64,000 bases of DNA from NCBI GenBank assembly GCA_030248195.1, contig JASAND010018129.1, positions 80,663 through 144,662 on the forward strand, given 5' to 3'. Below the pieces are notes generated by a model that did no database searches, had not been told where the DNA came from, and worked only from the letters and a program-made list of their open reading frames with translations. Numbering within the stretch: the first letter of the stretch is position 1; every line of letters begins with the position of its first letter. The translations under genes were made by a program, and so were the position numbers. Origin of the DNA: Trissonchulus latispiculum (lineage: Eukaryota > Nematoda > Enoplea > Enoplida > Ironidae). Positions 26,116-51,964 of the stretch are shown here, one piece after another.

Positions 26116-28589
26116 TGTAATGAACTGAGTGAGATTAGAATGGAAAAACTTGACCAATTTAATTTGATTTCGAAAGTGGGGTCACTTAGGTTGAAAGTTC
26201 ACTTACACGGAAGGTTAGCGCGTTTGCCTAAGGTAGACAAACTTATGTACCAGATTCCCGAAAGGTGGTTTTCCAAAATCGGGGATCTCTACAGCTAACC
26301 TGTTAGGGGTACTATTGTGAGTTCGTTTAGTTCAGAGGGGTTCGGCACTATCCAATCGCACCAGGAGTATGGATAGGATCGCTTTGACGCAACAGGTTAA
26401 AACTAAGATCAGACAATTAGTCTTCGACTTGAGATAAAGATCCAACTTAATTGGATCTGAGCAAATTACCTTTATTATTATCCCTGGGAGATCTCACCTG
26501 GATCTCTTTTCAGCAGCTGAAATGTAGACTAACAATTGCACGCAACAAGGTTAATTTATTATCCAAGATTGAGATGATTACAATTAAAGGGACAGAATGG
26601 TTTCAAGACAATTATTAACAGCAAATAGAATTACAGTATTCACAGGATTACGGGTTACTCAATTTACCAGAGTTGCCAGCCCTTGGTTGGGAAGGGTTAT
26701 TTTTGGGGATGAGAGATTACCAAAATATAACTTAACCAGATTAAGGTCTGACCGGTCAATGACTAATTTAAGACTAATTATTAGTCCTCTTCTTCAGGTA
26801 TTATGACTGGGCACGTTAGGTGTGTTGCGTGACGTGTTTAAACTCAAATATACTCTCTCTCTATTAGTCTTTTACAGAGAAACTACAACACAGGTTCAAT
26901 GTAACAGATAATTAGCTAAAATTAACAGAGTGTCGGATATTACAATTCCGGTCTATGGAGTTGGGTGATCCCGTCAGGTTACACCTGCAACCTCACGAGT
27001 GGTTAGGGAAGTTTGGATAGTAAACAGTAAAAGGGGTCGGACCAGGCGGGGTGATACCGGGAGATGGCTTCAAGTATAGTTATAAGTTAAATTAAAAGGG
27101 CTTTAAATTAAGTTTCTTCACTAGATCCTCTTCCTTGGATTTATTTCTATCCACTTATAGTGGTCTAAACCAGAGACAGGGCAGGAACACCGGTTCCTGA
27201 ATAGGATAGGATAGAGGTGATCTTCTGACACATTTTTAGGCAAAGTTTAAAGATAAGTTTTAGGCTGACGTCGAAAGTAACTGATGTTTTAGGTTAGTAA
27301 CTACAGATGAACAGTTCAGTTGATTTTGGCGGTTTTCCCAGTATAGATCAGGTTGTCGGATCAAGTGTCTCTGCCTCAGACTACTATCTTCAGAATTCCA
27401 ATCTCAATGTACCTTCTAAAGTACTGAACTACGCCAACGGAAATCAGGTCAAATCAATCAATCTATCAATCAATACTGGATCAGGCTACTAAATCACAGG
27501 CTCCGGTCAATCTCAATAGTGTTCCACTGGATCAGGCTCCACTGACAATGATCTGGCAGGACAGGATCACGGCGAACCTGAATCAAATGGGTTAAAACCC
27601 ATTAGTTCAGAATACAAGTGCGGGAATCAAACCCAGCAACTATTACTCACTTTTAAGGCTTTCAAAGACGAAAATTGAGGCTTTGGTTAATTCTGGTTAA
27701 GATTTTATTAAAAACTGGAATTAGTGTACTTTGACCACTTTTGCAAGACAAAAAATGTGACTAATTATGCGCTGTTAGCTTAAAATAGATAGATTTCGCC
27801 GAATATGAGTTTTTGGGGCGATTTCCTGCATTGAGATGCCGGAAATCGCCGATTCAACATATATTCTTTGCAATCATATTCGGTCTGCGCATAATTAGAT
27901 TTTAGGCGTAAGATTCGCGACAGGAAAGCACCTGTTTCCTGTATAACAAGTTTACAAAGGTAGAAACGTGTACTCGCAGGATTATTTCTTTTAAGCTTAT
28001 TAGAAGATGGTTTCATTGTAATCTTTAATTCTTACGTAATTACACAGTATTAATATCCTAACTAACTATTATTTATGTGATTTTAGGTTTATTTGATGCT
28101 TACGTAAAGATATTCACCATGTGTGCCATTAAATCCCATAATTGCTTGCTTGCATTGATTAACGAGTATAATTTGATGCTTACAGTCAGATTTGGCTAGT
28201 ATTTTCGATAGAAAACGTTTACTCTTTTGGAGTTACTTGTCTGAGCTGTAGAAACGATATACTTTGCAAAAATACAAACTACAGCCAGATTAGTTGTCCT
28301 GTTAATGAGAACAAGTGAGGGCAAGAATAATAACTTCAACATAATTCTTGCAATTTGGTTAAAGCTGACTTTTGCCTTTTATGCTAAAGGCTAACAAAAC
28401 GTATGAGTTATTTTGTGATGCACTGCGAGGATTACTAGCTCGAGATGGATCTACTGGCACAGATCTAGCTAATGAACACATATAATTAATACGAGACAAT
28501 GGACAGACCTAACTAATTTATGTTACAGATTTTGGGACAAAATTCGGCTCTAAACAGATAAAACAGACCAGCACGAAGTCCTTTATTTG

Positions 28590-28639
28590 CGATTCGTCCA
28601 CTCCCTTCTTGCGGGTATACCTAGTACGTGGACGAATCG
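28590..28639 (-). other. Conserved hairpin in the 3' LTR
   Basis: CGATTCGTCCAC pairs perfectly with GTGGACGAATCG over 12 bp, with an inner CCC/GGG pairing around TTCTTGC. See the copies at 20,142 and 47,697. Confidence 0.75.
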
Positions 28640-28739
28640 AGGACCACCTGGTAATACCAGCTTATCCTGGGGATCCCCGTGACCCTGGTCTAGATTAACT
28701 ACCTAATTTGCATATTACCTCGATATCGAAATAGGTACT

Positions 28740-28936
28740 CATTCACACTGTTTATCACACTCATATCCCTCAGATCCGCAAGCATTCACAACAAACACAC
28801 ATTTATACATATTCACAACCGAAAGGAAGATAAAGGGGGGGGGGGGGTTTGGGGGGCATTCACACTGTTTATCACACTCATATCCCTCAGATCCGCAAGC
28901 ATTCACAACAAACACACATTTATACATATTCACACC
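28740..28936. repeat. Local 78-bp duplication split by a G run
   Basis: CATTCACACTGTTTATCACA through TTTATACATATTCACA occurs at about 28,740 and again at about 28,858, with a short segment containing a 13-G run between. The 5' LTR has a single copy. Confidence 0.8.
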
Positions 28937-28948
28937 AATTTCCTGCCT

Positions 28949-29914
28949 TTTTTTCCTGTACTGCCACACCCCGGTTGCTTTCGCGAGGAGGGGTAACGCC
29001 AAACCAAATTTGCTCAGGGTCCACGGTTTGGCGTTGAATAATTGCATAAGCAATTACCCGAGGCGGCGGCAAAGCTACTGCCGGAGCAGAAGTAATCACA
29101 ATACTTCGATCGCATCATGACCACCCGTCAGCTCCATTCAAGGGGTTTCCCCCCTGGACGGCCAACTCCTTGAAAAACTCGGATAACAACCATACAACTA
29201 TTGGGGGGGGGAACTATTGGCACAGCCGTACCAAGCCTATCATAGATGGTTGACTGTTATCAGCTGACAACAGATCCAGTTTGATTAAAGTTGTATACAG
29301 TTTCAAACAATTTTTAAAAGAATTTTCTTTTATCAGACCCTTAGGATCCAAAGTTCCGTGATTGCGGCCGACATGAATGCAGAGGGTACATTCTCCCCTC
29401 TGGTCAGCCTGAGGTGCGAGTTTGCGTCATAAACTGAATCCATTTAAGATTCAGGTTTAATTTCAAATTAAATAAAAAGACAAACTAAGTTATTATTACT
29501 TTGGTTTGATTCTTACCACTCGCCTGGTAACCCCTGGCGAGTAAGGGGGGATGAAATCCTAACTTGGAAAAAGCAGTATTTCCGTATCCCATTTCAGTCA
29601 GGATGTGTTGTCTTTGTTGTTCCTGTTTTGTTGTTCCTGCTTTTGTTGTTGTTGTTGTCGTTGATCTGAGTTTGTAGACAAGTGAGACCTCTAATCCAAA
29701 GGATTTGCTTAGATCGCTTCATGGTGGGATCATCCGCTCCCTCTCCGCTGATCGGGAAGCTCCATCTCCACTATTTCCCGACCTACAGCTGCCTTCTTGG
29801 GTAAGGCTTTGGAAGGTACAGTCGTTACCAGTTGTCCCCAAACTAAGATGAAGTGGGTTTGAAAGAAATTTAAAATTGTTCCATAAATTGATAAAAATTT
29901 CCAATTTCCTGCCT
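28949..29914. mobile_element. 966-bp insertion in the 3' LTR
   Basis: CCAATTTCCTGCCT occurs at 28,935-28,948 and again at 29,901-29,914, a 14-bp duplication bounding sequence absent from both other LTR copies. The left end starts with a T run, so a minus-strand retroposed insert with a short A tail is possible. No family is recognised inside. Confidence 0.6.
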
Positions 29915-30369
29915 AATACAGGAATCCTAAGACAAACTTCACAAGGTTGGTCTCATGCACCTGATGAGGACCGGTGAGCTATCACATGTCAAGGTAATCC
30001 AGTGCAACTGACATTCCGAACTGTTTAGGATACTATCTTTAATTAGTATAAGATTTACCACACTTTACCGTTTGACAATTATTGGTAGAGCATACTACAA
30101 CTTGTTGGGCCTTGGAATCCCTGGATTATCCCAATGTGCCTAGCTATATTTTTCAACAATCATTCATTCGACTAACATTCATACTGATTTGACAATTCTC
30201 ACAACCCCTACCGTACAAGGGGAGTTTCCGTGAGTTGCCACCACAATTATACGAAAACATTCATTCCGCATACATGCAATTCAGAACATTCTACAGCCAT
30301 TCAACCAGACATCCTTGAAACTTGGTTAATTTCGGAACCTCACGCTCCATGAGGAGTTTACCCGAATAA

Positions 30370-30545
30370 CCACCTTAGGTACTTTTTGGGGACACATTCA
30401 CACATTAATTTTGCAACACATTCACGCTTCAATTGTACTAAACATTCACACTTCAGGCTTACAAAACATTCACACCTCAGACTTACAAAGCATTCACACT
30501 TTGGACTCACAAAACATTCACACTCCAATTGTACAGAACATTCAT
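30370..30545. repeat. Degenerate ACATTCACAC tandem repeats
   Basis: About seven units of 22-25 bp built on ACATTCACACTTCAGGCTTA. The same array is shorter by about 75 bp in the 5' LTR (48,360-48,475). Confidence 0.7.
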
Positions 30546-30755
30546 ACTAATAACTATCTAGCTACTTAGACTAACTAATGAATTAAACTTAGGCTCATTT
30601 GTGTAAGAACTTTGTAAACTTTGGACTTTGTTGTGCGCGACTTTTACAGCTTTGCAATTCCTCAGAATTGCCTATAAAAGAAATTTTATGGGAAAAAGTT
30701 TAAATTTTACAAGTTTGGAAAAAGGTTTGACTTGAACTTTGATGAAAGCCAGTGA

Positions 30756-30780
30756 GTAATAATTGCTAAGCAATTATTAC
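30756..30780. other. Conserved palindrome (GTAATAATTGC, TAA, GCAATTATTAC)
   Basis: An 11-bp perfect stem. The solo LTR has G-C instead of A-T at one paired position, keeping the stem. Confidence 0.75.
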
Positions 30781-31040
30781 TAACAACAAAGAACAGTTAA
30801 GTAAACTAAATACACAATTAATTAAAACTACGGAAAGTGAGGAATCCGGCCATTCCTCTTGAAAGACTGCTTGATAATTAATTAAATTAAACATAAAACA
30901 ACTCAAGTTTTAGGAATTAGCTTTTAAAACATCCTATACTTTTTTAATACCTAGCGATTTAATGCCGACCTAACGCTAAAAATAAAACATAATACTGACA
31001 GTATAATTTTTTTGTGCAATATGGCGTTTTTGAGAACATG

Positions 31041-31063
31041 GCCGGCAACTCCTAGTTGCCGGC
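31041..31063. other. Invariant palindrome in the 3' LTR
   Basis: GCCGGCAACT and AGTTGCCGGC around CCT, identical in all three LTR copies. Confidence 0.8.
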
Positions 31064-31871
31064 TGTAGGGAGTTACTTTTTCTTAACTAGCTTAGTAATT
31101 TTAGAGCCGTAATTAAGGGGCTCTCGAACTAAGAATTAGGGGTTTGGGGTCCCACTCATAATCCCATGAAAACTACGAAAAATAACCCCAAAAGTGACAA
31201 ATAAAGAGAATAGTTTGACCATAAAGGCCTACTAATTTTTAGGCCAAAAGGCCGTGGCTTGGTAAATGAAAAAGGGATTAAAACGAGAAAGTAAAAGAAG
31301 AGAAAAGTGGGCATGCTTCAAGACCTCCATCGCACAGGAGGGGTTTACATGAGCTGCCCCTTGATTTTTGGAATAACTTAAATAATAAAATAAAAGGTAA
31401 AATAAACCTGGCCCGGAGGCCCAACATGCTATGGAAATAAAGAATGGCCTTGGGCCCAAAAAATGGCTATAAAATCGGGGCTCGCTGGCCCAAAAACTTC
31501 ATAAAAACTGGCCATGAAGGCCCAAAAATACCATAAAAAATAAGGCCTAAAGGCCGAAAAATACAATATGAAAAATTGGCCAAAGGCCACTATAAAAATT
31601 CCTAATTATTTTTATCCTAGGCAGAAATTATGAGCCGGGCATAAGAAACCCATAGGCTCCTCAAGTTGGAGTGTTCGTGCTTTGTCTCAACCCTTTTCTG
31701 GCCAGTGTGGGCCAGAAAAGTCCTAGGTGCATCCTATGGGGAAGTGTGTGTTACTATATTCCCGTACCACACCAGTGGTCCGAGAAGTAACACACACGGG
31801 GATGGGGGACTAAAATTCAGGCCGCTCTCGGCCACTGCTAAACGAACACTGACTAACTTAAAATTTTGGGG

Positions 31872-31988
31872 ACCGAGCTGACAGTTTTGCTGACAGCTCG
31901 GTGACAGGTCATTAGCGAACTGGGGGCGGAATTTCTCTTTTATTTTAGCCTAAAGCTTCTAGAAAGTTCTAGAACTTTCTAGAAGCTT
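31872..31988. promoter_or_regulatory. Hairpin, GC box and heat shock element of the 3' LTR
   Basis: CCGAGCTG...CAGCTCGG forms a hairpin from about 31,873. GGGGGCGG follows at 31,922. Positions 31,953-31,988 form a perfect 36-bp palindrome whose core (31,957-31,984) is TTCTAGAA three times with 2-bp spacers, six perfectly phased heat-shock pentamers. In element orientation this lies about 1.57 kb inside the LTR, where a U3 enhancer would be. A TATA-like AAATAAAA follows on the minus strand in both LTRs of the full element. Confidence 0.75.
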
Positions 31989-33552
31989 GCTATCTTTTGC
32001 ACAGGGCCAGCAGCGGCTGGTTGAGCCAGCTGGGCCATTAAGAGCTGAAATTAATGAGATTTGCGAATTATTGCCCCCCAACTGACCCTTTTTTGATGGA
32101 TTTTCGATGCTGAAATTCTGCAAAACTTTGCAAAATTTTGGTTAACATGTAAACGTAACCAAAGGGGAAATAACATGAATTTTGGCATTTGTTTCTAACT
32201 TTTACGCAATCTACGTAAGTGCTAAAGACTTAAAGCGAAAACCTTGATTTTCTACAAGTTTAGCTAGCCATAACCGACTAATTTTCATAATAATTTTAAT
32301 TGTGGGGAATTAATTAAGCCCCCTCTGAAGTTTACCTATGTGTTAAATTTGTGTCCTCTTTTCTTTTCTTGAGGCGAACTTTTGTTGTCCTCCTCTTGTT
32401 GGACTAGGCCCAACAAAAGTTCACCTGAGGACAGCCTAGCGTACGTAGGAAGAGATGAAAGAAAGAGGGAACAGCAGCGCACCTGGCTGCCTTGTAGTCT
32501 GGGAGGTAGACAACCTCCCAGACAAAGAAAGGAGAAAGGAAAGGAGGAAAGAAAGTTAGTATAAAGGTTTTTTAGAAGTCCCCTTTTTGGACTTTCCTTT
32601 TAAGCAAAGTAAGATTAGGAAATAAAGGCTAATCTTGCTAAAACATTTTTGCTTATAACTCACTCAATTTTGGGAGTTAAAACGTGGGGATTGCATTTTT
32701 GGAAAGGGGAGAAATTTCTCTGTCATATGAGCCTAAGTTGTATCACAGACCAAAAATACATTTCTTACGTAATATTTAGCTAATTAACATAAATTAAACC
32801 TAATTAACACTAGTTAACATGATTAATAACAATTTAAAATCCTAAAACATTGTAAAACACGAATTATTGCAAATTAACGCACTGAGGTACTTATTACTTC
32901 TAGTTTCTTACGTATAACCTAATTATGTGATTATTTGGTCAAACCATCTTCCAATATATGTTATCAGACACTAAAAAGGCTTTTAAAACACTGCTGACAA
33001 AGATTAGTGTATTCTTTTCGGCTAGAAATGTTGAGTTCCTTATCATGGTAATTATAAATTTCGCTTTCACGCCAACACTAGGATTTCTAGAGTTTTACGA
33101 TTCTTCCGTTCTTATTAACCTCTAGCAATGGAAGGGTAAAGTGACCGCACCCGGGCCACTGAGGGAAAGGACACCTGTCCTTTCAGAAAGGGGAATTGTG
33201 GAATTGACCTTATTGTTATGATTTTTATCACTCCACGTGTAATAGTTCATTATTTGGACTGATTGATCCTAACTAAGCTTGTAAGTGCCCTTCTCTTGTG
33301 TTAATGCTGGAGTAACGTTAGGCCTTTCTTCTAGTATTAGTGAAAAAATGCTTATTTGGGACTGGCAACTCTGATTTCAACAGTTATACAACGACAATTA
33401 ATTATGGCTTGGACACAATAACAAACTAAAGCTTAACATCGATAAGATCTGTTAGATTTCGTTTCCTGTAGAAACCTCTTTTGGGATGGTGACCAATTAG
33501 AAACTAACTTTTTAACCACTTTTGAGCACAAGATCTAAGTCATTCCATTACA

Positions 33553-35333
33553 ACCTCCACAAGAAAAATGGGTGGGATTTCTGCTAGGGGGAATAAACCA
33601 AAATGTTAACCCATTTCTTTCCAAAATGTTATCAATTACACATCATAACAATTATCTATCACTTCTAATCAATGACTACTAACAATAGCTCTATATAACA
33701 GTTCTTCTAATAATCAAGATTAAGACCAATAAAGAGTATTTTACATGTGCTGTGTTTCGTGCTTGACATATATCCCAGTTCATATCATTATTCCTTTTGT
33801 AGTACACTAGCCTCCTAGGGCTTACCAGTCACAGTTCGTTATATTATCTGCTCTACATATTAAATTCTAACTTCTACTTCTTCTCTTTCTTGCAGGTGGG
33901 GTCGATCTACTATGGATCCGTTCCGCAACCACCATAACCTTCAAAATGTAAACTAATTTGCATATTCCTTTCAGGTGGGGTCGATCTACTATGGATCCGT
34001 TCCGCAACCACCATAATCCTCAAGACGTATACTAATTTGCATAATTTTTTAGTTCAGTTTTGCACTGAACACACCTGGTTCAGTGTCAGCGGGGGACTTG
34101 GGTTCATAAGCGCACCTGGCTTATATTTCAGCATGGGAATTCATAAGCGCACCCGGCTTATAGTACAGCATTTATTAGGGGTCGGCCTTCAATGGGCCCG
34201 TACCTCCCTAATCTCGTCTCCTTTTCTAGATATCAATATGAAAACTGAAATATTGGTTATCCATTTACTATTCCCGTCTCACGTCATTACAATTCATTCC
34301 AGCAATACAAAGACCATCTCCTCATTCAATACTAAATTCATATTATTATCGACCGTTACAGTATAAAAATAAGCCACGGGACTGTCTCAAAATGACTCAT
34401 CATAAAGATTCCTCATTCTTTTTAACTCATCAATTTTCATATCTCGGGATAACCAATAGGGCACAATACAGATATAACAGTTACAAACATTCAGCTAAAT
34501 ATTTCCTGATTAGCATATTAAAGTTTGATTCCACTCATTCAAGCTTTCACGATTAACTTTGAAATAAGCATCGAACTTCCCCGTTTTAACGTTCTCGAAT
34601 TATTAACAACTACACTATCAGCAATTATTCAAATTCGTTTTTTAAACTGTCACAAGCACATAATCATTAAATATAATTAATTAATACAACAGACACTCAT
34701 TATGAACATTCTGATGATTTGTACAGCAATACAATTAAAACGTTATTAATACCAATATAACACAACAGAATAACATAGCATATGAAATTACTGAATGACA
34801 GATTCAACAAACACAACAAACTAACCAGATTTCTGAATAAAATGCAACAGCTAAGGTTCTGAACTGGAAATTACTAGACACGTTATCCTTGCCATATGAT
34901 TTTTATAACATTCCCTCTTTAGCCAACCTTCTCCCTCTTCACACAATACTCACACAAGATTCCAAATACTACAACCACAATTAATATTACAACTACAATT
35001 CTAAACCCAAACAATATTATAATGACCAATATAATGATACAATTAGCTATGCTTTACAAGATACTGCAATTATTTCTAAATCTTTCGTCATGGTCATGAA
35101 ACTTTCTGTACAAATAACCGCATACTATTTTTGGTTCTTTTTGAGTTATTAGATACTAACAATTACTTAGTTACTTACAAAACTTCACAGTTACTACATA
35201 TACAGCAAAATACACTTCACTATTTTTTGTTTTATATGCATATCAGATTTTTTTTGAATTTTTTCACGAAATAGTACCTTTTTTGTTATCTTTTGAACAT
35301 TTTTAACTACAACTCTCTATTATATAGTTAGAT
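33553..35333. other. 3' untranslated interior of the LTR element
   Basis: AT-rich, with no minus-strand frame of note. A purine-rich GTGGAGGT abuts the 3' LTR on the minus strand and is the candidate polypurine tract. One 109-codon plus-strand frame near 34,100 has no recognisable content. Confidence 0.5.
33893..34043. repeat. 79-bp tandem duplication
   Basis: CAGGTGGGGTCGATCTACTA begins at 33,893 and at 33,972. The copies are nearly identical through ATCCGTTCCGCAACCACC and ACTAATTTGCATA. Confidence 0.9.
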
Positions 35334-36627
35334 CTAACTGCTCCAGCGAGGGGGAGTGTAATCTTCCTCCTCATAGTAGAAGGGCTCAGGGGACTCTGTG
35401 AGCCAACGCAAATAGTCTTCCATTTGTTCCTCCAAGGTGGGAGGATCGCATTCTGCGCAAGCGCAAGGGAGGGTATCTGGTGGGACGTTGGTCGGTTCTG
35501 GCTCCCTTTCAGGTTCGTTGGCTCTGCAAAGGAGCCGCAATTCTTCGAGCTGACGCCAGTACTCTCTGGCTGGAATGATTTCGGCCTCCAGACAGCTGCG
35601 TAGAGCTTGAATCTCCCTAATGATGTAGTTGGGGATGTCATGGCGCCAATCATCAGGAACCAGAGGAGGTGCCATTCCAGGTGGGGGTAGTGGATCCAGA
35701 CTGTCTACCACGGATTCCGGGAGGGACTCAGATTCAGGGAGGGATTCGGTTTCGGATGCAGGTGTGATTTCTTCAACATCTTGCTCTTCTTCTTCCCAAT
35801 CCTCCTCGACAGAAAAGTCCTGGTTTGGGAACTTGGGGGGTGAAATGGGAGGATAGGGGCGGGTCTCATTCAGCATCGTAGGGTAGTTGGGCTCCGGCCC
35901 AAAGGGCGGTGGAGGGTAATAGGGTTGTGGGTTTGGAATATCCGGGTTGTTGACTATCTGCAGAATTTCCTTTCGCAGATTCTCCAAAGAGACAGCGTAG
36001 AGGGCTCTATCACCCGGAGTATCATCTACCTTATAAGTGTTGAGTGAGAAAATGCGGAAGGCGGCTTGAATATGATCCTGAACGGTCGTGTCAGGATGGA
36101 TACTGACAGCGTTGTCTGTATCAATCTGAGCCTTTCTGAGCCGCAAGCCAGTATCGCCGAATTTGGTCTTGTATCCCGGGTATTGTGTGGCAACGGGATA
36201 TTTATCTTCTTTGGGGAACATTTCCAGGAGACGTTCTGCTCTATATGTCTTCGGTTCATGATGAGGGTGGTCGTTTAGGCTCTTCAGGACAGTGTAGGAA
36301 CCCAGCCAATGAGGCACTTTTACTGGACAACGGGTCGCGGCCTGCTTCTGGCCTGGTTTTGCGAATGGAACTCCGCATTGAGGACAGATTGCCTGGCCAT
36401 CTGATGAGGGTGTACAGGTTGTGGGCCTGTAACCAAGATACGGTTGGGCAATTGGGGGATTTGGCATCGCAGAGGGAACTGGAGCTCTGTGTCGGATGGC
36501 TGGTGAAGGATCCGTTGAGATAGAATATATGCCCCATTCCATCAGGGCTTCTCTGACACGGTTCCGTTGGGGCGGTTCTGTGGGGTCATAGGTATTGGCA
36601 TATGGGGTTGTTTTCTTTATTTTCCAT
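35334..36627 (-). CDS. Orphan protein of the LTR element, proline- and acid-rich
   Basis: The open frame is about 430 codons. It runs up to a splice-acceptor-like TTTTCTACTTTCAG ending at 36,628, so it is probably the body of a spliced mRNA. The first in-frame ATG is at 36,542 (MEWGIYSIST). Visible features: a CPQCGVPF cysteine pair with a later Cys and His residues that may bind zinc, a Pro-rich middle (YYPPPPFGPEP), a strongly acidic stretch (EEDWEEEEQDVEE) with SLPESE repeats, and a CACAEC cluster near the end. I recognise no family. Its position last before the 3' LTR and its spliced look suggest an accessory gene. Confidence 0.65.
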
Positions 36628-42200: not shown

Positions 42201-42653
42201 TCTGATATCCATTCGTACAGGATAGATCTTCCCAAATCTATAAATCAAGCTAGGTTCGTCCCTCAAGATTGTTTGGTTAAGTTGAGCGTGTCCATTCACT
42301 ATGTCACGGATGATTTTGTAGTTGATAAGACTAGGAGAAATCCGTCCGTCCAATCCAGCGGTCATGACGCTATCAATACTGTGCTTAAGGGAATGCTCGA
42401 AGTTGGACACAATTAATGAATACTGCACCTGAGTACTCATGGTCAAGGCTTCACATCGTGCAGAATTGATCAACCCAACTAATTCTTGTACGGAGTAATG
42501 CATGAAAGAGTAAATTTGTTCATTCGCCTCAACTAACTTCTCCAAGGCTTCGTTATGAGCGATTACCTGTTCATCCAGTTTTTGGGTGGCTTCAATGACA
42601 GCATTGACCTTATCTTTTACGGATCCCAAATTAACAGTATTGGATATGGCCAT
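39243..42653 (-). CDS. Envelope transmembrane part, aspartic protease and Gag-like modules
   Basis: 1136 codons from the first ATG; the frame stays open about 120 bases upstream of it. Residues 1-120 look like a heptad-rich fusion-protein ectodomain ending in GRISPSLI, as in baculovirus-F/errantivirus-type envelopes. Residues 393-413 form a membrane anchor. A Pro-rich tail with a PPPY late-domain-like motif follows. Residues 640-725 are a retroviral-type protease (VLDTGASITV with LLGIDVLAKF). Residues about 815-895 and 920-1010 are two Gag-like helical modules (FIIGLQRDIR, FIAGLRHEVR). Protease placed behind envelope is not the usual order. Bases just upstream of the ATG encode a basic RNRR site and a hydrophobic segment. 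Splicing or processing probably separates these parts. Envelope identity is by architecture, not alignment. Confidence 0.72.
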   Translation of the reverse strand: MAISNTVNLGSVKDKVNAVIEATQKLDEQVIAHNEALEKLVEANEQIYSFMHYSVQELVGLINSARCEALTMSTQVQYSLIVSNFEHSLKHSIDSVMTAGLDGRISPSLINYKIIRDIVNGHAQLNQTILRDEPSLIYRFGKIYPVRMDIRKLLFGFIMEIPTPTREDVAPIYEVSNVGYNDPSNHAQMKAPVPRFVRHEVNHRNSEFSEIKLEECRSSPGLWVCGPESLISTPQSACLKAIVSATPIDSANCRQQMMVKVLTPDTDFASTPAGVLIRTSHSEIMLTQTPQLQHVSRGETIAVPSNGVIWIEHGSYNHIIVGDLVLTSAIEVVQYSAPLITYKVPFESPDLGIVPIQFTDLERAEYENKAVKKLLEKHHRTAPLVIHPLNMNFWTGFIIILILIVVGVIVTIWFSPCMSEFRENLLQRIRGSCFGLGQRLSRLGTGTQRTPTSPPTSPPDSSSPSELRSRSPLLGGPLHPIHAVTEGRAKGARPRSYAHPPGRGQLRFEDIPLEPLPPYPPYSPESGYPNPIRPRRPLLSAPEEEQLRNEPFHQLHQYRASSYERESPPLRAASPDIGRAGARAVTPPPYQGNRSRDSSTGRRDRIWCLMDEVDYTPRGTPTILPIPCIDISIQGITIEAVLDTGASITVMSEEIAQRHNFPLTNLERPRQSSSATGHQLNITKKLETAISFPGCPNHPPIPHAILVSPHLPQAMLLGIDVLAKFSGSFELCLSTKQLKIHLTPPPAAYSIPLTTTHRVSEMISRDLRRKIMAPTTQSRHMPDVKTEASQGARARSPRPSKAHPSTTSSPPVKQGESETIKQYYHRVRDYADSVYGDYINSESIMISLGRIFIIGLQRDIRLQMPISTGRLDELYLLALSVEEDLYKDKPGPSTRMRASASEVQTTPARTVTPKLADRTTQSPADFRAWRELLSTIAQRENESVDSFYERLLAYAGQVYPERMTAKSVDTYLSLLFIAGLRHEVRDRTEMYPDKAKSLYDLYQSALIGERYLPREKQQAPLPNYAAQSTADQPRVPQTTPTTEQRSHRRRATECGINVPPGFGGGYFNEEDAHMPLDYSIPREGSRYSSRDSSTTQHYLEGRTADPQSAPQVRERIRNRSGAPWSLEPEEPASPEY

Positions 42654-42775
42654 ACCAAGTCCAACTATACCAATAATGGAACCGACGGCTCGCCTATTTC
42701 TCTGAAGAGGGAGTTTGGATTGGACATGTTGGAATCCAGTATCTGCGTAAAGCGTTGTATTCTTGATATTTAGGT
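42654..42775 (-). other. Frame break at the envelope cleavage region
   Basis: The upstream frame (surface part) stops at 42,694. The downstream frame (transmembrane part) is open from about 42,770. In the downstream frame lies RNRR followed by a hydrophobic, glycine-rich segment, the pattern of a furin-type site and fusion peptide. Whether the change of frame is recoding, splicing or a mutation cannot be told from one copy. Confidence 0.55.
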
Positions 42776-45700
42776 TGCGAGGTGTTACACAGGATAGGAC
42801 TTTTGTCGCAGATTATCTTCATTATGGACGAGTAGTATCTAGTGTTGAGTATTCCACCATACATCTCATGATATTCTTCTGTTACGTTCCTAATCAGTCC
42901 AGTTAGATGTGGTTCATGAGGGCAGTCAGCAAGTAGTTCGTTCGCTCGATTCCGAGGGGTGTCGCATTTCTCACACTGATCCCGAAGGCTTTCTGGAACT
43001 GAAGAGGGCTCTCCTCCACAGAGGGAGCAGAAAAATACCCAAGCTTGCATCTTCTTAAGTTGTGGAGGTTTGGGCACCTTCATGTGAATCAGGATTGGAA
43101 CATATTCTGTTTTAGTGTAGGTTGCCATTAATCCTTTAGGAGATAGGGCTAATCCCCATTTGGTGGATACCATGGTGTTCATCGCTTTAGCCTTTTGAGT
43201 GAGGTAGTCTTCATTTTCCTGTGCTTGGATACAGGGAACCAACATGGCTATCATCAGGCCAAAGGCAATCCACATTACTAGGATGCGAAAAGGTAGTGAA
43301 GTTGAACCCTTCACTTTATTAGGTGGCTTAGACATTGGGGATTCGTTATGTTCATTCTCGGGGGGAGATAGATCCATCTTTTCCCTTTTGGATAGTCGTA
43401 CGGTCGTGGGGACAGAACTTGACCTAGGATTATTCTTGCGGGTCGGTGTAGGAGTTCTTCTTTTGGGCACTATCGGGGGATCGGTTGTTTTCCTGACGGG
43501 ATGAAGGGCTTCCATTCGGGCTCGAGCGAGCAAGAATTGCTGGTATGATTCCCAACATCGTTCCCTTTCTCTCTTCATCTGCCGTATACGACGTTCTTCT
43601 TTTTGGGCGCGCTTTCTCTCTTTACTTCGAACATCTTTCAAGAGTCTACGGAGAAACTTGATATCTTGGGGGCAGAGGTCAGATTCAGGAATATGAATTT
43701 CTCCAATCGCTTTCTTTATTTTCTTGATAACCTTCTTCCTTTTCTTCTTACTCTTCCTATTCTTTCTAGTCTTTATGACAGTAGGCTCGACAGCATTTAA
43801 GTTCACTCGGACTTCTCGAGTTCGGAGCTTCTTTGTAGCATTATCCAATTCCTCATCTGTATCTTCTGACATTTCTGAGCTGGATGTATCTGTTGGGCTA
43901 TCCATGAGATCATTCTGGATCAGTTTTCCTTGGAATAGGCCAAAGGTCTTATTTTGGAGAGAGGGATCAATGTTTTCTTTGTTATCGTCCGTTAGGCCCA
44001 ACGTCAAGGGAATAGGGGGATTTAATAAGTTTTCGACCCATAGATCGAGTCTTCCGGCATGGGGAGATTCTTCAGGGGCTTCCAATATGTCACTGTCAAG
44101 GCAGCAGTAGAATTCCTCATCAGAAACTGATCTTTCCAATCTCTTCAATATCCGTCTGCTGACTTCATAGATGGCATCCTGATCAATAGGCTTAAACTTA
44201 CTTTTCCCTGGGTATTTGATGAGATCGGTGATTTGATATTCCAACTGAGGAGGAGATGAGGCTCCGCCCTGGACCATGAAGATACTAGGGTCTAGGACTC
44301 GCAGGAGCTCTTCTTCGGTGAGCATTTCTCCAAATCTGTCCAGAACTCTTCGAGCAAATTTCACAACTGGGCCCATCTCGACAGGGGTAGGTTCCGGCTG
44401 ATGTTCTTGTTTTGATTGAGGGATGTCAGAGTTCTGAATCCGTGATATCCGGTCTTGTTCCATCTGACTCCGGTCATCTTGCTTCTTTTGTTCCATCAAT
44501 TCCTTTTCAGAAACCAAGGGAGCATGTAACAAATCCATTGCCATACTACCATGCGCAAGTACCTTCCGTGCACTTTGCATCACTGTAGGCATATCAATGT
44601 CAGAATTTGGCTTAGGACCAATAGGTGCTGGGTTAGGATAAAGAGAGATGATTCCATTCTCCTGATGACTGAGAATAGGCCCAACCTGAGGAGTGGGGGA
44701 CAGCCCAAGTTGTATTCTGAATTCTCGTACTGCTTCTCCCAAACCAATGGCCAAAACATCTGAGGGAGGAACTGACTGAAACCTGGGGGCAGGATAGGTT
44801 TGAGCAAAATCATGACATCGAGGACTTCTTCGCAATCCTCGTCCACGTCCTAATGACCGTCCTCGTGCTTGGTTCCTTGACCGTTCCACATCATAAGGTC
44901 CAGGGAACCTTCTAGTTGGAAGCTGAGTCACTTGGATTGGCTCATTGATTGATTGCTCCGGAGAATTTTCCTTTTCCGTGTTTCCCTCAGTGGGGGAGGA
45001 GGTGGAGGATGAATCCTGTGAAAGCCTCTGTTTCACATGGGAAGGATAGCCATACTCTATGGTCTGAGGTTCTTCCAATCGGTGAGTGCGAGGATAGGTG
45101 ACAGACATTGGCTTCTGATACATAGGCAGGGAGTAAAGTTCACGATCCAGTTTTTCAGTCTCAGGATCCACTGATTCCTTCTCCGCATTCAAAGTATAGG
45201 TGGATTTCTCCTTTGGTTGTTCAATCTTCACATAAGGAGGGATAGAGAAATATTGTCCTCCCAAATCCTTGATTTCTTGTTCCAGTTGTAGAATCTGGGT
45301 GGGAAAACTAGAACTCTCAGGCGGAAAATAGGCAGTTTTCCTTTCTGGTTCCGCTCCAATGACTTTTACCATGGAAGGGGCGTTCCTCTGCTGACCCACG
45401 TCAGCAAATCTGGATCCATATGGTGTGTGAACGGCTTCAGCAGCATCTCGTCCGTCATTTCTGTTCAACTGTTGTCTGGGCTGCGGATATTGTTGTTGCT
45501 GTCCTGGTGGTCCATTTCGGGGTGGATATCTATCATTATAGTTCCGATTCATTCCATTTCCATTTCTCGGATACCTGGACTGTCCATTGTTGGGTCGGAA
45601 GTTATTGGAATTTCCGTTACTGTTGTTGTTGTAACTATTGCGCGGAGGACCTGGATACTCAGTTCTGGGTCGGTAGGCTCCACCTCCGGGCGATCTGCAT

Positions 45701-46677
45701 TCACGCTTTGAATGTCCGGCTCTTCCACAGTTGAAACATCTGAAATCATTGGGGAAAGGAATCTTATCGTTTCCTCTTCGGGGAGGAGAGGCAGATTTAG
45801 ACTGTTCAGGGGAGGAAATTTTGATTTCTTTTATTTCATTGGCAAGCACGGCTGTGCTCTGGACCAGGGAGCTGATGGTATTTAGAAGGGCGGGACCTGT
45901 GAGATTCGCACTCGAGACGGCTGCCTCCGGATCCACTTCCAAAAATGCAGGTGTTCCTTCTCCGGGGTAGACACCTTCTGCTTCTCGAGCCTTTTTAAAG
46001 GCTTGGGAATAATCTGCAGTGTCCATTGGAACATGCGGCTTGAACTCATTCCGCAATCCGATGAGAAAGGTTTTCAGCTTGATATCCTCTAGCATATCAG
46101 GATCTCCTCTGTCTTCCCACGCAATTCGGGCGTATTTCTGCAAACGGAGAGAATAATCCGCGATAGACTCGTGTGGTGCCTGTCTAATACTGAACAACTT
46201 AGCCGTGGCATGCATATCTGTCATGGGTGGCATCATGACCTCTCTAAGGGCTCGGACAGAGGCTTCCCAGTCGTTCTGTTGCGTGGCACCCCTGGGCATG
46301 CACTTGAAAATTTCCGCAGCTCTGCCTCTGAGAGTTGAGGAGATGTTCATAACTTTCTGATAATCATCCAAATTGAGTCGCTGACTGAATCTCTCGTAGT
46401 TGACGAGGTGATCATCAAAATTTTCGTGATCTTTTCCGGAATAGGTGGGCATATCTAGGTAAGAGGCGGCTATGGCCTGGTTCTGAATGCTATCACGGAG
46501 CTGGCCTAGTAGATCTTCAATATTCCCATTTGGCATCATAGGCACTTGAGGAAATACCAACTGCGGCATCTGTGGATTGAAGGGAGGGGGTGCTCCTGGA
46601 GGGCCGGGAGGTCCATGTTGTGGACCCATGTTTGGGGGTCCGTTTCCATCTTCATCGGCGGGATTGAATTGATCCAT
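42694..46677 (-). CDS. Gag with zinc knuckle, long linker and envelope surface part
   Basis: Start chosen at ATG 46,677 (MDQFNPADED); the frame is open back to about 46,853. Numbering here is from 46,803. Residues 110-285 are a Retrotrans_gag-like capsid region (SYLDMPTYSGKDHENFDDHL, TFLIGLRNEF). Residues 356-369 are a CCHC knuckle, CFNCGRAGHSKREC, followed by an Asn/Arg/Gly-rich nucleic-acid-binding stretch. Residues 740-907 contain related helical segments (FARRVLDRFGEMLTEEEL and VSRRILKRLERSVSDEEF). A very basic region (KKKRKKVIKKIKKA) follows. Near 1170-1197 a signal-anchor-like segment ends in CIQAQ and opens a Cys-rich stretch (CSLCGGEP) with N-glycosylation sites, probably the envelope surface subunit. 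Gag and surface protein in one frame suggests an internal spliced start for envelope. Confidence 0.75.
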   Translation of the reverse strand: MDQFNPADEDGNGPPNMGPQHGPPGPPGAPPPFNPQMPQLVFPQVPMMPNGNIEDLLGQLRDSIQNQAIAASYLDMPTYSGKDHENFDDHLVNYERFSQRLNLDDYQKVMNISSTLRGRAAEIFKCMPRGATQQNDWEASVRALREVMMPPMTDMHATAKLFSIRQAPHESIADYSLRLQKYARIAWEDRGDPDMLEDIKLKTFLIGLRNEFKPHVPMDTADYSQAFKKAREAEGVYPGEGTPAFLEVDPEAAVSSANLTGPALLNTISSLVQSTAVLANEIKEIKISSPEQSKSASPPRRGNDKIPFPNDFRCFNCGRAGHSKRECRSPGGGAYRPRTEYPGPPRNSYNNNSNGNSNNFRPNNGQSRYPRNGNGMNRNYNDRYPPRNGPPGQQQQYPQPRQQLNRNDGRDAAEAVHTPYGSRFADVGQQRNAPSMVKVIGAEPERKTAYFPPESSSFPTQILQLEQEIKDLGGQYFSIPPYVKIEQPKEKSTYTLNAEKESVDPETEKLDRELYSLPMYQKPMSVTYPRTHRLEEPQTIEYGYPSHVKQRLSQDSSSTSSPTEGNTEKENSPEQSINEPIQVTQLPTRRFPGPYDVERSRNQARGRSLGRGRGLRRSPRCHDFAQTYPAPRFQSVPPSDVLAIGLGEAVREFRIQLGLSPTPQVGPILSHQENGIISLYPNPAPIGPKPNSDIDMPTVMQSARKVLAHGSMAMDLLHAPLVSEKELMEQKKQDDRSQMEQDRISRIQNSDIPQSKQEHQPEPTPVEMGPVVKFARRVLDRFGEMLTEEELLRVLDPSIFMVQGGASSPPQLEYQITDLIKYPGKSKFKPIDQDAIYEVSRRILKRLERSVSDEEFYCCLDSDILEAPEESPHAGRLDLWVENLLNPPIPLTLGLTDDNKENIDPSLQNKTFGLFQGKLIQNDLMDSPTDTSSSEMSEDTDEELDNATKKLRTREVRVNLNAVEPTVIKTRKNRKSKKKRKKVIKKIKKAIGEIHIPESDLCPQDIKFLRRLLKDVRSKERKRAQKEERRIRQMKRERERCWESYQQFLLARARMEALHPVRKTTDPPIVPKRRTPTPTRKNNPRSSSVPTTVRLSKREKMDLSPPENEHNESPMSKPPNKVKGSTSLPFRILVMWIAFGLMIAMLVPCIQAQENEDYLTQKAKAMNTMVSTKWGLALSPKGLMATYTKTEYVPILIHMKVPKPPQLKKMQAWVFFCSLCGGEPSSVPESLRDQCEKCDTPRNRANELLADCPHEPHLTGLIRNVTEEYHEMYGGILNTRYYSSIMKIICDKSPILCNTSQPKYQEYNALRRYWIPTCPIQTPSSEK

Positions 46678-46825
46678 ATCTTCTTCTGGGACTGATCTGT
46701 AGGGTTTCAGTTGATTCCTTGATAGGGTAAGCGTTGATCCTCTCTTGATCTTAATGATGAGATCGTTGGGTCGTGATGTTTCCTCACTGGTAGGTTTCTT
46801 CAACAGGATTGTCTTCGCAGGATTA

Positions 46826-46857: not shown

Positions 46858-47696
46858 CCGTGTAATGAACTGAGTGAGATTAGAATAGAAAAACTTGACC
46901 AATTTAATTTGATTTCGAAAGTGGGGTCGCTTAGGTTGAAAGTTCACTTACACGGAAGGTTAGCGCGTTTGCCTAAGGTAGACAAACTTATGTACCAGAT
47001 TCCCGAAAGGTGGTTTTCCAAAATCGGGGATCTCTACAGCTAACCTGTTAGGGGTACTATTGTGAATTCGTTTAGTTCAGAGGGGTTCGGCACTATCCAA
47101 TCGCACCAGGAGTATGGATAGGATCGCTTTGTCGCAACAGGTTAAAACTAAGATCAGACAATTAGTCTTCGACTTGAGATAAAGATCCAACTTAATTGGA
47201 TCTGAGCAAATTACCTTTATTATTATCCCTGGGAGATCTGCTTGCTTGCATTGATTAACGAGTATAATTTGATGCTTACAGTCAGATTTGGCTAGTATTT
47301 TCGATAGAAACGTTTACTCTTTTGGAGTTACTTGTCAATATAAAAGTCTGAGCTGTAGAAACGATATACTTTGCAAAAATACAAACTACAGCCAGATTAG
47401 TTGTCCTGTTAATGAGAACAAGTGAGGGCAAGAATAATAACTTCAACATAATTCTTGCAATTTGGTTAAAGCTGACTTTTGCCTTTTATGCTAAAGGCTA
47501 ACAAAACGTATGAGTTATTTTGTGATGCACTGCGAGGATTACTAGCTCGAGATGGATCTACTGGCACAGATCTAGCTAATGAGCACATATAATTAATACG
47601 AGACAATGGACAGACCTAACTAATTTATGTTACAGATTTTGGGACAAAATTCGGCTCTAAACAGATAAAACAGACCAGCACGAAGTCCTTTATTTG

Positions 47697-47743
47697 CGAT
47701 TCGTCCTTTCCCTTCTTGCGGGTATACCTACGTGGACGAATCG
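47697..47743 (-). other. Conserved hairpin in the 5' LTR
   Basis: CGATTCGTCC pairs with GGACGAATCG. Small changes shorten the outer stem compared with 28,590. Confidence 0.65.
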
Positions 47744-48682
47744 AGGACCACCTGGTAATACCAGCTTATCCTGGGGGTCCCCGTGACCCTGGACTAGATT
47801 AACTACCTAATTTGCATATTACCTCGATATCGAAATAGGTACTCATTCACACTGTTTATCACACTCATATTCCTCAGATCCGCAAGCATTCACAACAAAC
47901 ACACATTTATACACATTCACACCAATTTCCTGCCTAATACAGGAATCCTAAGATAAACTTCACAAGGTTGGTCTCATGCACTTGATGAGGACCGGTGAGC
48001 TATCACATGTCAAGGTAATCCAGTGCAACTGACATTCCGAACTGTTTAGGATACTATCTTTAATTAGTATAAGATTTACCACACTTTACCGTTTGACAAT
48101 TATTGGTAGAGCATACTACAACTTGTTGGGCCTTGGAATCCCTGGATTATCCCAATGTGCCTAGCTATATTTTTCAACAATCATTCATTCGACTAACATT
48201 CATACAGATTTGACAATTCTCACAACCCCTACCGTACAAGGGGAGTTTCCGTGAGTTGCCACCACAATTATACGAAAACATTCATTCCGCATACATGCAA
48301 TTCAGAACATTCTACAGCCATTCAACCAGACATCCTTGAAACTTGGTTAATTTCGGTTAATTGTACAAACATTCACACTTCAGGCTTACAAAACATTCAC
48401 ACCTCAGACTTACAAAGCATTCACACTTTGGACTCACAAAACATTCACACTCCAATTGTACAGAACATTCATACTAATAACTATCTAGCTACTTAGACTA
48501 ACTAATGAATTAAACTTAGGCTCATTTGTGTAAGAACTTTGTGAACTTTGGACTTTGTTGTGCGCGACTTTTACAGCTTTGCAATTCCTCAGAATTGCCT
48601 ATAAAAGAAATTTTATGGGAAAAAGTTTAAATTTTACAAGTTTGGAAAAAGGTTTGACTTAAACTTTGATGAAAGCCAGTGA

Positions 48683-48707
48683 GTAATAATTGCTAAGCAA
48701 TTATTAC
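48683..48707. other. Conserved palindrome, 5' LTR copy
   Basis: GTAATAATTGC, TAA, GCAATTATTAC, identical to 30,756-30,780. Confidence 0.75.
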
Positions 48708-48966
48708 TAACAACAATGAACAGTTAAGTAAACTAAATACACAATTAATTAAAACTACGGAAAGTGAGGAAGCCGGCCATTCCTCTTGAAAGACTGCTTG
48801 ATAATTAATTAAATTAAACATAAAACAACTCAAGTTTTAGGAATTAACTTTTAAAACATCCTATACTTTTTTAATACCTAGCGATTTAATGCCGACCTAA
48901 CGCTAAAAATAAAACATAATACTGACAGTATAATTTTTTGTGCAATATGGCGTTTTTGAGAACATG

Positions 48967-48989
48967 GCCGGCAACTCCTAGTTGCCGGC
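48967..48989. other. Invariant palindrome, 5' LTR copy
   Basis: GCCGGCAACT, CCT, AGTTGCCGGC, identical to the copies at 21,643 and 31,041. Confidence 0.8.
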
Positions 48990-49844
48990 TGTGGGGAGTT
49001 ACTTTTTCTTAACTAGCTTAGTAATTTTAGAGCCGTAATTAAGGGGCTCTCGAACTAAGAATTAGGGGTTTGGGGTCCCACTCATAATCCCATGAAAACT
49101 ACGAAAAATAACCCCAAAAGTGACAAATAAAGAGAATAGTTTGACCATAAAGGCCTAATTTCTAGGCCAAAAGGCCGTGGCTTGGTAAATGAAAAAGGGA
49201 TTAAAACGAGAAAGTAAAAGAAGAGAAAATTGGGCATGCTTCAAGACCTCCATCGCACAGGAGGGGTTTACATGAGCTGCCCCTTGATTTTTGGAATAAC
49301 TTAAATAATAAAATAAAAGGTAAAATAAACCTGGCCCGGAGGCCCAACATGCTATGGAAATAAAGAATGGCCTTGGGCCCAAAAAATGGCTATAAAATCG
49401 GGGCTCGCTGGCCCAAAAACTTCATAAAAACTGGCCATGAAGGCCCAAAAATACCATAAAAAATAAGGCCTAAAGGCCGAAAAATACAATATGAAAAATT
49501 GGCCAAAGGCCACTATAAAAATTCCTAATTATTTTTATCCTAGGCAGAAATTATGAGCCGGGCATAAGAAACCCATAGGCTCCTCAAGTTGGAGTGTTCG
49601 TGCTTTGTCTCAACCCTTTTCTGGCCAGTGTGGGCCAGAAAAGTCCTAGGTGCATCCTATGGGGAAGTGTGTGTTACTATATTCCCGTACCACACCAGTG
49701 GTCCGAGAAGTAACACACACGGGGATGGGGGACTAAAATTCAGGCCGCTCTCGGCCACTGCTAAACGAACACTGACTAACTTAAAATTTTGGGGACCGAG
49801 CTGACAGTTTTGCTGACAGCTCGGTGACAAGTCATTAGCGAACT

Positions 49845-49944
49845 GGGGGCGGAATTTCTCTTATTTTATTTCTTTCTTCTTTTATTTTCTTTCTTTTATT
49901 TTAGCCTAAAGCTTCTAGAAAGTTCTAGAACTTTCTAGAAGCTT
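49845..49944. promoter_or_regulatory. GC box and six-unit heat shock element, 5' LTR
   Basis: GGGGGCGG at 49,845 and the triple TTCTAGAA array at 49,913-49,940. The spacing between them is extended by a T-rich insert relative to the 3' LTR. This is the copy that would drive the element. Confidence 0.78.
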
Positions 49945-51420
49945 GCTATCTTTTGCACAGGGCCAGCAGCGGCTGGTTGAGCCAGCTGGGCCATTAAGAG
50001 CTGAAATTAATGAGATTTGCGAATTATTGCCCCCCAACTGACCCTTTTTGGATGGATTTTCGATGCTGAAATTCTGCAAAACTTTGCAAAATTTTGGTTA
50101 ACATGTAAACGTAACCAAAGGGGAAATAACATGAATTTTGGCATTTGTTTCTAACTTTTACGCAATCTACGTAAGTGCTAAAGACTTAAAGCGAAAACCT
50201 TGATTTTCTACAAGTTTAGCTAGCCATAACCGACTAATTTTCATAATAATTTTAATTGTGGGGAATTAATTAAGCCCCCTCTGAACTTTACCTATGTGTT
50301 AAATTTGTGTCCTCTTTTCTTTTCTTGAGGCGAACTTTTGTTGTCCTCCTCTTGTTGGACTAGGCCCAACAAAAGTTCACCTGAGGACAGCCTAGCGTAC
50401 GTAGGAAGAGATGAAAGAAAGAGGGAACAGCAGCGCACCTGGCTGCCTTGTAGTCTGGGAGGTAGACAACCTCCCAGACAAAGAAAGGAGAAAGGAAAGG
50501 AGGAAAGAAAGTTAGTATAAAGGTTTTTTACAAGTCCCCTTTTTGGACTTTCCTTTTAAGCAAAGTAAGATTAGGAAATAAAGGCTAATCTTGCTAAAAC
50601 ATTTTTGCTTATAACTCACTCAATTTTGGGAGTTAAAACGTGGGGATTGCACAGACCAAAAATACATTTCTTACGTAATATTTAGCTAATTAACATAAAT
50701 TAAACCTAATTAACACTAGTTAATAACAATTTAAAATCCTAAAACATTGTAAAACACGAATTATTGCAAATTAACGCACTTAGGTACTTATTACTTCTAG
50801 TTTCTTACGTATAACCTAATTATGTGATTATTTGGTCAAACCATCTTTCAATATATGTTATCAGACACTAAAAAGGCTTTTAAAACACTGCTCACAAAGA
50901 TTAGTGTATTCTTTTCGGCTAGAAATGTTGAGTTCCTTATCATGGTAATTATAAATTTCGCTTTGACGCCAACACTAGGATTTCTAGAGTTTTACGATTC
51001 TTTCGTTCTTATTAACCTCTAGCAATGGAAGGGTAAAGTGACCGCACCCGGGCCACTGAGGGAAAGGACACCTGTCCTTTCAGAAAGGGGAATTGTGGAA
51101 TTGACCTTATTGTTATGATTTTTATCACTCCACGTGTAATAGTTCATTATTTGGACTGATTGATCCTAACTAAGCTTGTAAGTGCCCTTCTCTTGTGTTA
51201 ATGCTGGAGTAACTTTAGGCCTTTCTTCTAGTATTAGTGAAAAAATGCTTATTTGGGACTGGCAACTCTGATTTCAACAGTTATACAACGACAATTAATT
51301 ATGGCTTGGACACAATAACAAACTAAAGCTTAACATCGATAAGATCTGTTAGATTTCGTTTCCTGTAGAAACCTCTTTTGGGATGGTGACCAATTAGAAA
51401 CTAACTTTTTAACCACTTTT

Positions 51421-51937
51421 GTATAACTCATACTAGTTTTTTCAACGGAAGATTAGTTCCTACATATAGATGAGAGCACGCTCTGACGTGCATCGTGCTA
51501 CAAATTATTTGTAGCACGTTGCAGCGTGCTACAAATAAATTGTAGCACGGAGATTACGTAATTTTTGGTAATTTCAGTACATGATCTTATCTCGATAAAA
51601 ACTATATTTTTGCATTTTAATGGCTTTTAAACGCGATGTACACATTTTTGGAACGAAAACTATGTAAATATAGTCGGGGTACTTATCTCAGTAAAATTAA
51701 TATTTTATGTATTTTAAAGGTTTTAACCGTGGTGACAAAGGTTTTGGGCCTTATTCGTTATACAAGTGCTTTGTAGCACGGTTTTGCATTCACAGTTTTG
51801 TAAATTCATCGGGCGGGAAGCCCTCGTGCGCGACACTCGTGCGCTTCGCGCACTCGTGTCGCACACTCGGAGCTTCCCGCACGATGAACGTACATATCTG
51901 TGAATGCACTAAAAACCGTGCTACAAAGTATACTTGA
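51421..51937. mobile_element. 517-bp hairpin-rich insertion in the 5' LTR
   Basis: It interrupts ACCACTTTTGAGCACAAG, which is intact at 33,522. The ends read GTATA and TATAC, with a 2-3 base duplication (TT or TTG). Inside, GTGCTACAAAT/ATTTGTAGCAC is a perfect palindrome, and 51,769-51,929 is a long inverted repeat (TTTGTAGCACGG ... CCGTGCTACAAAG) whose centre carries GCGGGAAGC/GCTTCCCGC. No coding frame is likely, so it is probably a MITE. Confidence 0.7.
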
Positions 51938-51964
51938 GCACAAGATCTAAGTCATTCCATTACA

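What the first reader, a model, noticed from the sequence alone, without database searches (positions are those of the whole stretch)
26116..51964. A 25.8-kb LTR element with Gag, protease, envelope and NADAR but no polymerase
LTRs with matching TGTAATG/CATTACA ends and AATG on both sides prove a single insertion unit. The interior has intact long frames for structural and accessory proteins. Yet no reverse transcriptase, RNase H or integrase motif is seen in 13.3 kb, and the non-coding gaps (0.3, 0.85 and 1.8 kb) are too small to hide an intact pol. Keeping Gag, envelope and two accessory genes while relying on pol in trans would be an unusual life style, closer to a satellite virus than to a usual non-autonomous LTR element.
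Basis: partly seen in the sequence, partly recalled or inferred. Interest (0 to 1): 0.93.

Follow-up and report, generated by a model that had tools for sequence, protein, structure and literature searches.

The report
Pol-less giant enveloped LTR element
A retrovirus-like element in what is probably an animal genome keeps genes for its shell, protease, cell-entry protein and an ADP-ribose-related protein but no copying enzyme, so it probably borrows one from a relative, like a satellite virus.

Summary
Left LTR 26116-33552 and right LTR 46861-51964 differ at 32 of 4540 aligned sites, have TGTAATG/CATTACA ends and are flanked by AATG. The interior is read on the minus strand: four long ORFs, no RT, RNase H or integrase found by Pfam or motif. 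New anatomy: the envelope matches paramyxovirus-type F protein (PF00523, E 5.7e-9 for the whole open frame of ORF2; the match needs the frame upstream of its first ATG). ORF2 runs F1 - transmembrane helix - protease - two extra capsid C-terminal domains, where RT would be expected. ORF3 has a NADAR domain in which a lysine and an aspartate that contact ADP-ribose are not conserved. The order Gag-Env-PR is not what simple pol loss from Gag-Pol-Env leaves; it is the order published for planarian Burro giant Gypsy elements, which carry RT-RH-IN after PR. Best reading: a pol-less, probably helper-dependent, Burro-like element. TelKA2n (env kept, most of pol lost) and NADAR-bearing retrotransposons are precedents for single features; I met no report of the combination in my paper searches. 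A pol-less family versus one deletion derivative is open, because the host genome search did not complete. New variant of a known kind; interest 0.62.

The parts
46861..51964 (-). 5' LTR in element orientation (5.1 kb; holds a 0.5-kb segment at 51422-51933 that the other LTR lacks)
26116..33552 (-). 3' LTR in element orientation (7.4 kb; holds segments at about 26495-28142 and 28949-29900, and a 117-bp local duplication, that the other LTR lacks)
26112..26115 (.). target-site duplication AATG, left copy
51965..51968 (.). target-site duplication AATG, right copy
42694..46803 (-). ORF1, 1369 aa from its first TTG: Gag, long linker, hydrophobic signal-like segment, about 180 aa that may be the F2-like part of the envelope
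46051..46341 (-). Gag capsid domain (PF03732 E 5.8e-8); ORF1 Gag is 38% identical (114 of 303) to metagenomic protein P0005
45694..45741 (-). CCHC zinc knuckle (E 6.9e-4; 20.0 bits, just under Pfam's 20.8 cut-off)
43228..43284 (-). hydrophobic segment near the end of ORF1, read as signal peptide of the envelope (inference)
39243..42812 (-). ORF2, open from 42812, first ATG at 42653 (1136 aa from there): F1 - TM - tail - protease - two capsid C-terminal domains
41910..42743 (-). paramyxovirus-type fusion glycoprotein match (PF00523, 35.2 bits in the whole open frame, cut-off 29.8), with furin-like RNRR at 42690-42701 and a hydrophobic fusion-peptide-like stretch after it
41412..41468 (-). hydrophobic segment, transmembrane helix of the envelope
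40476..40775 (-). retroviral-type aspartyl protease with DTGA motif (PF13975 E 1.2e-9)
39954..40241 (-). extra capsid C-terminal-like domain CA2
39594..39911 (-). extra capsid C-terminal-like domain CA3
36933..38393 (-). ORF3, 486 aa; NADAR domain at 37881-38291 (PF08719 E 1e-8, 36.0 bits, cut-off 35.1)
35334..36653 (-). ORF4, 439 aa from its first GTG, proline- and acid-rich, no family found
33553..35333 (-). non-coding 3' interior, 1.8 kb, with a 79-nt tandem repeat at 33886-34043

Best explanation
A non-autonomous giant enveloped element, Ty3/Gypsy-type and Burro-like in layout, which lacks RT-RNase H-integrase and is copied and integrated by the pol of a related element. Shown: LTR pair with 4-bp duplication, Gag, F-type envelope match, protease, extra capsid-like domains, NADAR domain, no pol found. 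Inferred: its RNA is packaged by its own Gag; the ORF2 protein, an envelope whose inner tail carries protease and two capsid-interaction domains, is drawn into the Gag lattice by those domains, so one protein brings entry and maturation functions to the particle, much as Gag-Pol fusions bring enzymes elsewhere; RT and integrase come from a co-expressed helper with compatible Gag and LTR ends; NADAR blunts or senses host ADP-ribose-based defence, or acts as a binding module.
Confidence: 0.55

Rival explanations
1. One-off deletion derivative: an autonomous Burro-like element lost RT-RH-IN in one copy, which was mobilised once; no satellite lineage exists.
For: Pol-less derivatives are known; TelKA2n is a published family missing most of pol (PMC5408684, passages). 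Only one copy is seen here.
Against: PR is followed in the same open frame by two capsid-like domains and a further tail, not by a recognisable truncated RT. All four ORFs are open.
Confidence: 0.24
2. A retained host locus: the insertion is kept by the host for its Gag, F or NADAR genes and is no longer mobile.
For: Fewer disabling changes than expected from LTR divergence (P 0.018) although both LTRs differ by large segments.
Against: LTR sequence may be more indel-prone than genes; the ORFs were chosen for being open; one locus; LTRs 0.7% apart suggest a recent insertion; the envelope frame is split.
Confidence: 0.1
3. Assembly artefact: pol was dropped where two copies were joined or collapsed.
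For: No reads available; long repeats are hard to assemble.
Against: ORF2 runs open across PR to the end of the second capsid-like domain and beyond, and matching duplications frame the unit.
Confidence: 0.06
4. Pol is present but too divergent to be seen, in the ORF1 linker or ORF4.
For: 651 aa of ORF1 and all of ORF4 have no family match at E<=10.
Against: No RT-box pattern in six frames; by eye the linker and ORF4 are largely low-complexity, charged or proline-rich.
Confidence: 0.05

Closest known systems
Burro giant Gypsy-like elements of planarians (PMC6431247, section 7 read; the original Nature paper is not held)
   Same: Gag with Retrotrans_gag and CCHC at the start, accessory regions, envelope related to fusion glycoproteins between Gag and protease, very large size
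   Different: Burro carries dUTPase-RT-RH-IN after PR in one 4,873-aa polyprotein and apoptosis- and ubiquitin-related domains; here no pol was found, two capsid-like domains follow PR, and NADAR is the accessory gene
TelKA and TelKA2n LTR elements of bdelloid rotifers (PMC5408684, passages)
   Same: Envelope of paramyxovirus F type (pfam00523); TelKA2n keeps env while lacking most of pol
   Different: in TelKA the env is an ORF3 after pol; [quoted passage not shown] no NADAR or capsid-domain fusion in the passages seen
Errantiviruses (gypsy of Drosophila; layout recalled, baculovirus origin of env also in PMC5408684 passages)
   Same: Ty3/Gypsy-type Gag with a class I envelope
   Different: Envelope of baculovirus origin, after pol (recalled); Baculo_F (recalled as PF12259) is not among the matches listed here
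Atlas virus, a retrovirus-like element of hookworm (PMC9094657, abstract start in a listing only)
   Same: invertebrate retroelement with an envelope related to that of an RNA virus
   Different: envelope is of the phenuivirus GN-GC kind; described as intact
Ectocarpus Gypsy elements and oyster Tx1 LINEs with NADAR (PMC12477816, passages)
   Same: NADAR captured by a retrotransposon
   Different: [quoted passage not shown] here a separate ORF in a pol-less element
Non-autonomous Gag-only LTR elements, TR-GAG (search listing only; nature recalled)
   Same: Gag kept, pol supplied in trans
   Different: no envelope or accessory genes (recalled)

Membership tests
LTR retroelement, Ty3/Gypsy type | LTR pair with TG..CA ends and short target-site duplication | tested here: met
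LTR retroelement, Ty3/Gypsy type | Retrotrans_gag capsid plus CCHC knuckle | tested here: met
   (knuckle slightly under Pfam's cut-off)
LTR retroelement, Ty3/Gypsy type | primer-binding site complementary to a tRNA next to the 5' LTR | tested here: inconclusive
   a TGG-starting stretch at 46843-46826, 17 nt inside the LTR edge; no tRNA gene in the window to compare with
LTR retroelement, Ty3/Gypsy type | pol with RT-RH-IN | tested here: not met
Burro | envelope between Gag and protease | tested here: met
   published order
Burro | PR followed by dUTPase-RT-RH-IN | tested here: not met
Burro | sequence kinship with planarian Burro | not tested
   no Burro sequence was at hand
Paramyxovirus-type F protein | PF00523 above curated cut-off, furin-like site, fusion peptide, TM anchor | tested here: met
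   35.2 bits in the whole open frame of ORF2 and 37.2 in a 486-aa piece, cut-off 29.8; two pieces overlapping by 22 aa match in register below cut-off, E 2.6e-4 and 0.022, the first beside other coiled-coil families; RNRR and hydrophobic segments; no match if read from the first ATG
Paramyxovirus-type F protein | recognisable F2 subunit | tested here: inconclusive
   the last 238 aa of ORF1 have no Pfam match at E<=10
Errantivirus | envelope ORF downstream of pol | tested here: not met
   envelope lies before PR and no pol was found
Active NADAR hydrolase | family profile match | tested here: met
   PF08719 36.0 bits, cut-off 35.1; phrog_1017 E 7.3e-11; NCBIfam NADAR models below their cut-offs; no single-sequence match in PDB or the protein set
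Active NADAR hydrolase | residues that bind and cut ADP-ribose: two glutamates, lysine, aspartate, tryptophan (Mol Cell 2023, passages) | tested here: inconclusive
   both glutamates and the tryptophan kept; lysine reads leucine by count from the first glutamate, aspartate missing, in a 3-sequence alignment
Satellite of a helper element | several pol-less copies and a helper in the same host | not testable with these tools
   The genome search did not complete

The most novel reading that the evidence does not exclude
A lineage of self-enveloped satellite retroelements: pol has been given up for good, and its place taken by duplicated capsid C-terminal domains fused to envelope and protease, so that the entry protein itself is the carrier that loads protease into the particle, while RT and integrase are taken from a helper; a NADAR protein handles host ADP-ribose defence.
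Probability: 0.33. Interest if true: 0.85.

Novelty: new variant of a known kind. Interest (0 to 1): 0.62.

Why it matters
Non-autonomous LTR elements are best known for keeping little beyond the ends, or Gag alone (recalled). An element that keeps Gag, protease, a virus-type entry protein and an accessory gene, but no polymerase, would show that reverse transcription can be the borrowed function while particle building and cell entry are kept. An envelope-protease-capsid chimera would be a new way of loading both functions into a particle, testable by simple binding assays.

Tried and rejected
Simple Gag-Pol-Env element with pol deleted: rejected as the parent layout, because Env precedes PR. 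Baculovirus-F envelope: not listed among Pfam matches at E<=10 (the filters drop weak ones). Relatives: NADAR protein and ORF2 protein gave no hit among the candidates scored (7997 at E<=0.001; 7992 at E<=0.01); ORF1 residues 40-400 gave 1 of 5956 candidates; viral contigs none for P0001, P0002, P0003 or alignment A3; phage records none for P0003. Envelope model from one sequence: pLDDT 38, discarded. Profile of the three capsid copies against PDB sequences: no hit. ORF1 linker repeats: only one of three pairs exceeds shuffles (z 6.8, 0 of 1000; the others P 0.029 and 0.156); the linker comparison used overlapping windows and is void. RNA structure of the 79-nt repeat region: no better than shuffles (z -0.08). 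Interior proteins against the window's flanks: no match at E<=1. Rfam at gathering scores and tRNA scan: none. Two matches to a loose HHCC pattern: one antisense inside gag, one crossing stops. LTR divergence was first counted with slightly overlapping blocks (32 of 4557) and recounted (32 of 4540); one search used the first figure.

My statement that I met no report of the combination rests on the listings and the passages named; most subscription papers are not held.

Full report
Observation. Two direct long terminal repeats bound the unit: 26116-33552 and 46861-51964. Over seven non-overlapping aligned blocks they differ at 32 of 4540 sites (0.70%). Both have TGTAATG/CATTACA ends, and AATG stands on both outer sides. 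The LTRs are unequal because each holds segments that the other lacks: in the left copy 1.65 kb, 0.95 kb flanked by a 14-bp direct repeat, and a local duplication; in the right copy 0.5 kb with inverted repeats, plus shorter differences. So this is a single insertion unit, recent but not brand new.

Interior. The genes lie on the minus strand, so the right LTR is the 5' one. Four ORFs cover 10,302 of 13,308 interior bases. ORF1 starts with Gag (Retrotrans_gag E 5.8e-8; CCHC E 6.9e-4, just under cut-off), continues through a long linker without family match and ends with a hydrophobic, signal-like segment and about 180 aa. ORF2 opens in another frame (overlap 42694-42812). It has a furin-like RNRR, a hydrophobic stretch after it, and a match to fusion glycoprotein F0: 35.2 bits, E 5.7e-9 for the whole open frame, 37.2 bits, E 1.5e-9 for a 486-aa piece, cut-off 29.8. 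Of 15 PDB sequences listed at E<=10 for that piece, 11 are paramyxovirus F proteins, E 8e-4 to 0.13. Against this: read from its first ATG (42653), which lies behind the furin-like site, ORF2 gives no F match, so the reading leans on the frame upstream of that ATG. Two pieces overlapping by 22 aa match the profile in register, E 2.6e-4 and 0.022, both below cut-off. A transmembrane segment follows, then a DTGA aspartyl protease (E 1.2e-9).

NADAR and ORF4. ORF3 holds a NADAR domain (36.0 bits, cut-off 35.1; phrog_1017 E 7.3e-11). In an alignment with E. coli YbiA and a fragment of chain 8bau the two glutamates and one tryptophan named in the Mol Cell 2023 paper (passages) are kept, but a lysine that contacts ADP-ribose reads leucine and an aspartate is missing. 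I placed the paper's residues on 8bau by counting; that this chain is the paper's protein is my inference. Activity is uncertain. ORF4 has no match.

No polymerase. Pfam finds no RT, RNase H or integrase in any ORF, in the 13 of 13 gap pieces of 45 aa or more, or in the three LTR pieces tried out of many. No RT-box pattern occurs in six frames of the interior.

How it probably works. Gene order Gag-Env-PR is not what pol loss leaves in a Gag-Pol-Env element. It is the order published for planarian Burro elements, where dUTPase-RT-RH-IN follow PR (PMC6431247, section 7). The simplest reading is a Burro-like element without RT-RH-IN, copied by a relative's pol. The capsid-like domains after PR suggest that the envelope-protease protein is pulled into the Gag lattice through them (inference). 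[quoted passage not shown] that would fit ORF3 if it still binds ADP-ribose (inference).

Selection. On the usual model the two LTRs are identical at insertion, so their differences arose later. At that rate 10.3 kb of neutral ORF should show about 1.4 nonsense changes and 4.5 frameshifting small indels; at most one is seen, the ORF1/ORF2 frame break if it is one (P 0.018; 1.4e-5 to 4.1e-5 if 7 or 6 large differences are counted). LTRs may be more indel-prone than genes, and the ORFs were picked for being open, so this is a hint only.

What is open. No second copy was found. The host genome search did not complete; the protein set gave one relative of ORF1 and none of ORF2 or ORF3. A diverged LTR relative lies at about 21.2-24.1 kb, so the LTR family has at least one other member.

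Verdict. Real, well bounded, pol-less, with an unusual envelope-protease-capsid ORF. Several features have a precedent (Burro order, TelKA F envelope, TelKA2n pol loss, NADAR in Gypsy and LINE elements); I met no report of the combination in the searches named under Tried and rejected. New variant of a known kind.

Noticed in passing
window 21163-24145: Diverged relative of the LTR (68-76% identity in pieces between 21163 and 23393), same orientation, apparently ending in ATTCCATTACA at 24145; no match to the element's proteins in the flanks.
   Followed up: partly
window 14614-16104: Integrase core fragment (PF00665 E 1.1e-7, 32.5 bits, cut-off 32.6) with a cysteine-rich stretch in the next open frame; a different mobile element, strand +.
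   Followed up: no
window 51422-51933: 0.5-kb segment with inverted repeats inside the right LTR, MITE-like, absent from the left LTR.
   Followed up: partly
window 28949-29900: 0.95-kb segment in the left LTR flanked by the 14-bp direct repeat CCAATTTCCTGCCT, retroposon-like.
   Followed up: partly
window 33886-34043: 79-nt tandem duplication (91% identical) in the non-coding 3' interior; predicted RNA fold of the region no better than shuffles.
   Followed up: yes
window 43411-45363: ORF1 linker has short helical-looking repeats; one pair of three is significant (z 6.8), function unknown.
   Followed up: partly
window 42694-42812: The possible F2-like part and the F1 part of the envelope lie in two frames with a 118-nt overlap; decay, frameshifting or splicing not decided.
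   Followed up: no
window 21157-21498: Tandem pair of a 171-bp unit (99% identical) at the start of the diverged LTR relative.
   Followed up: no
window 53839-55512: Sodium:neurotransmitter symporter gene (PF00209 E 1.1e-181) next to the element.
   Followed up: no
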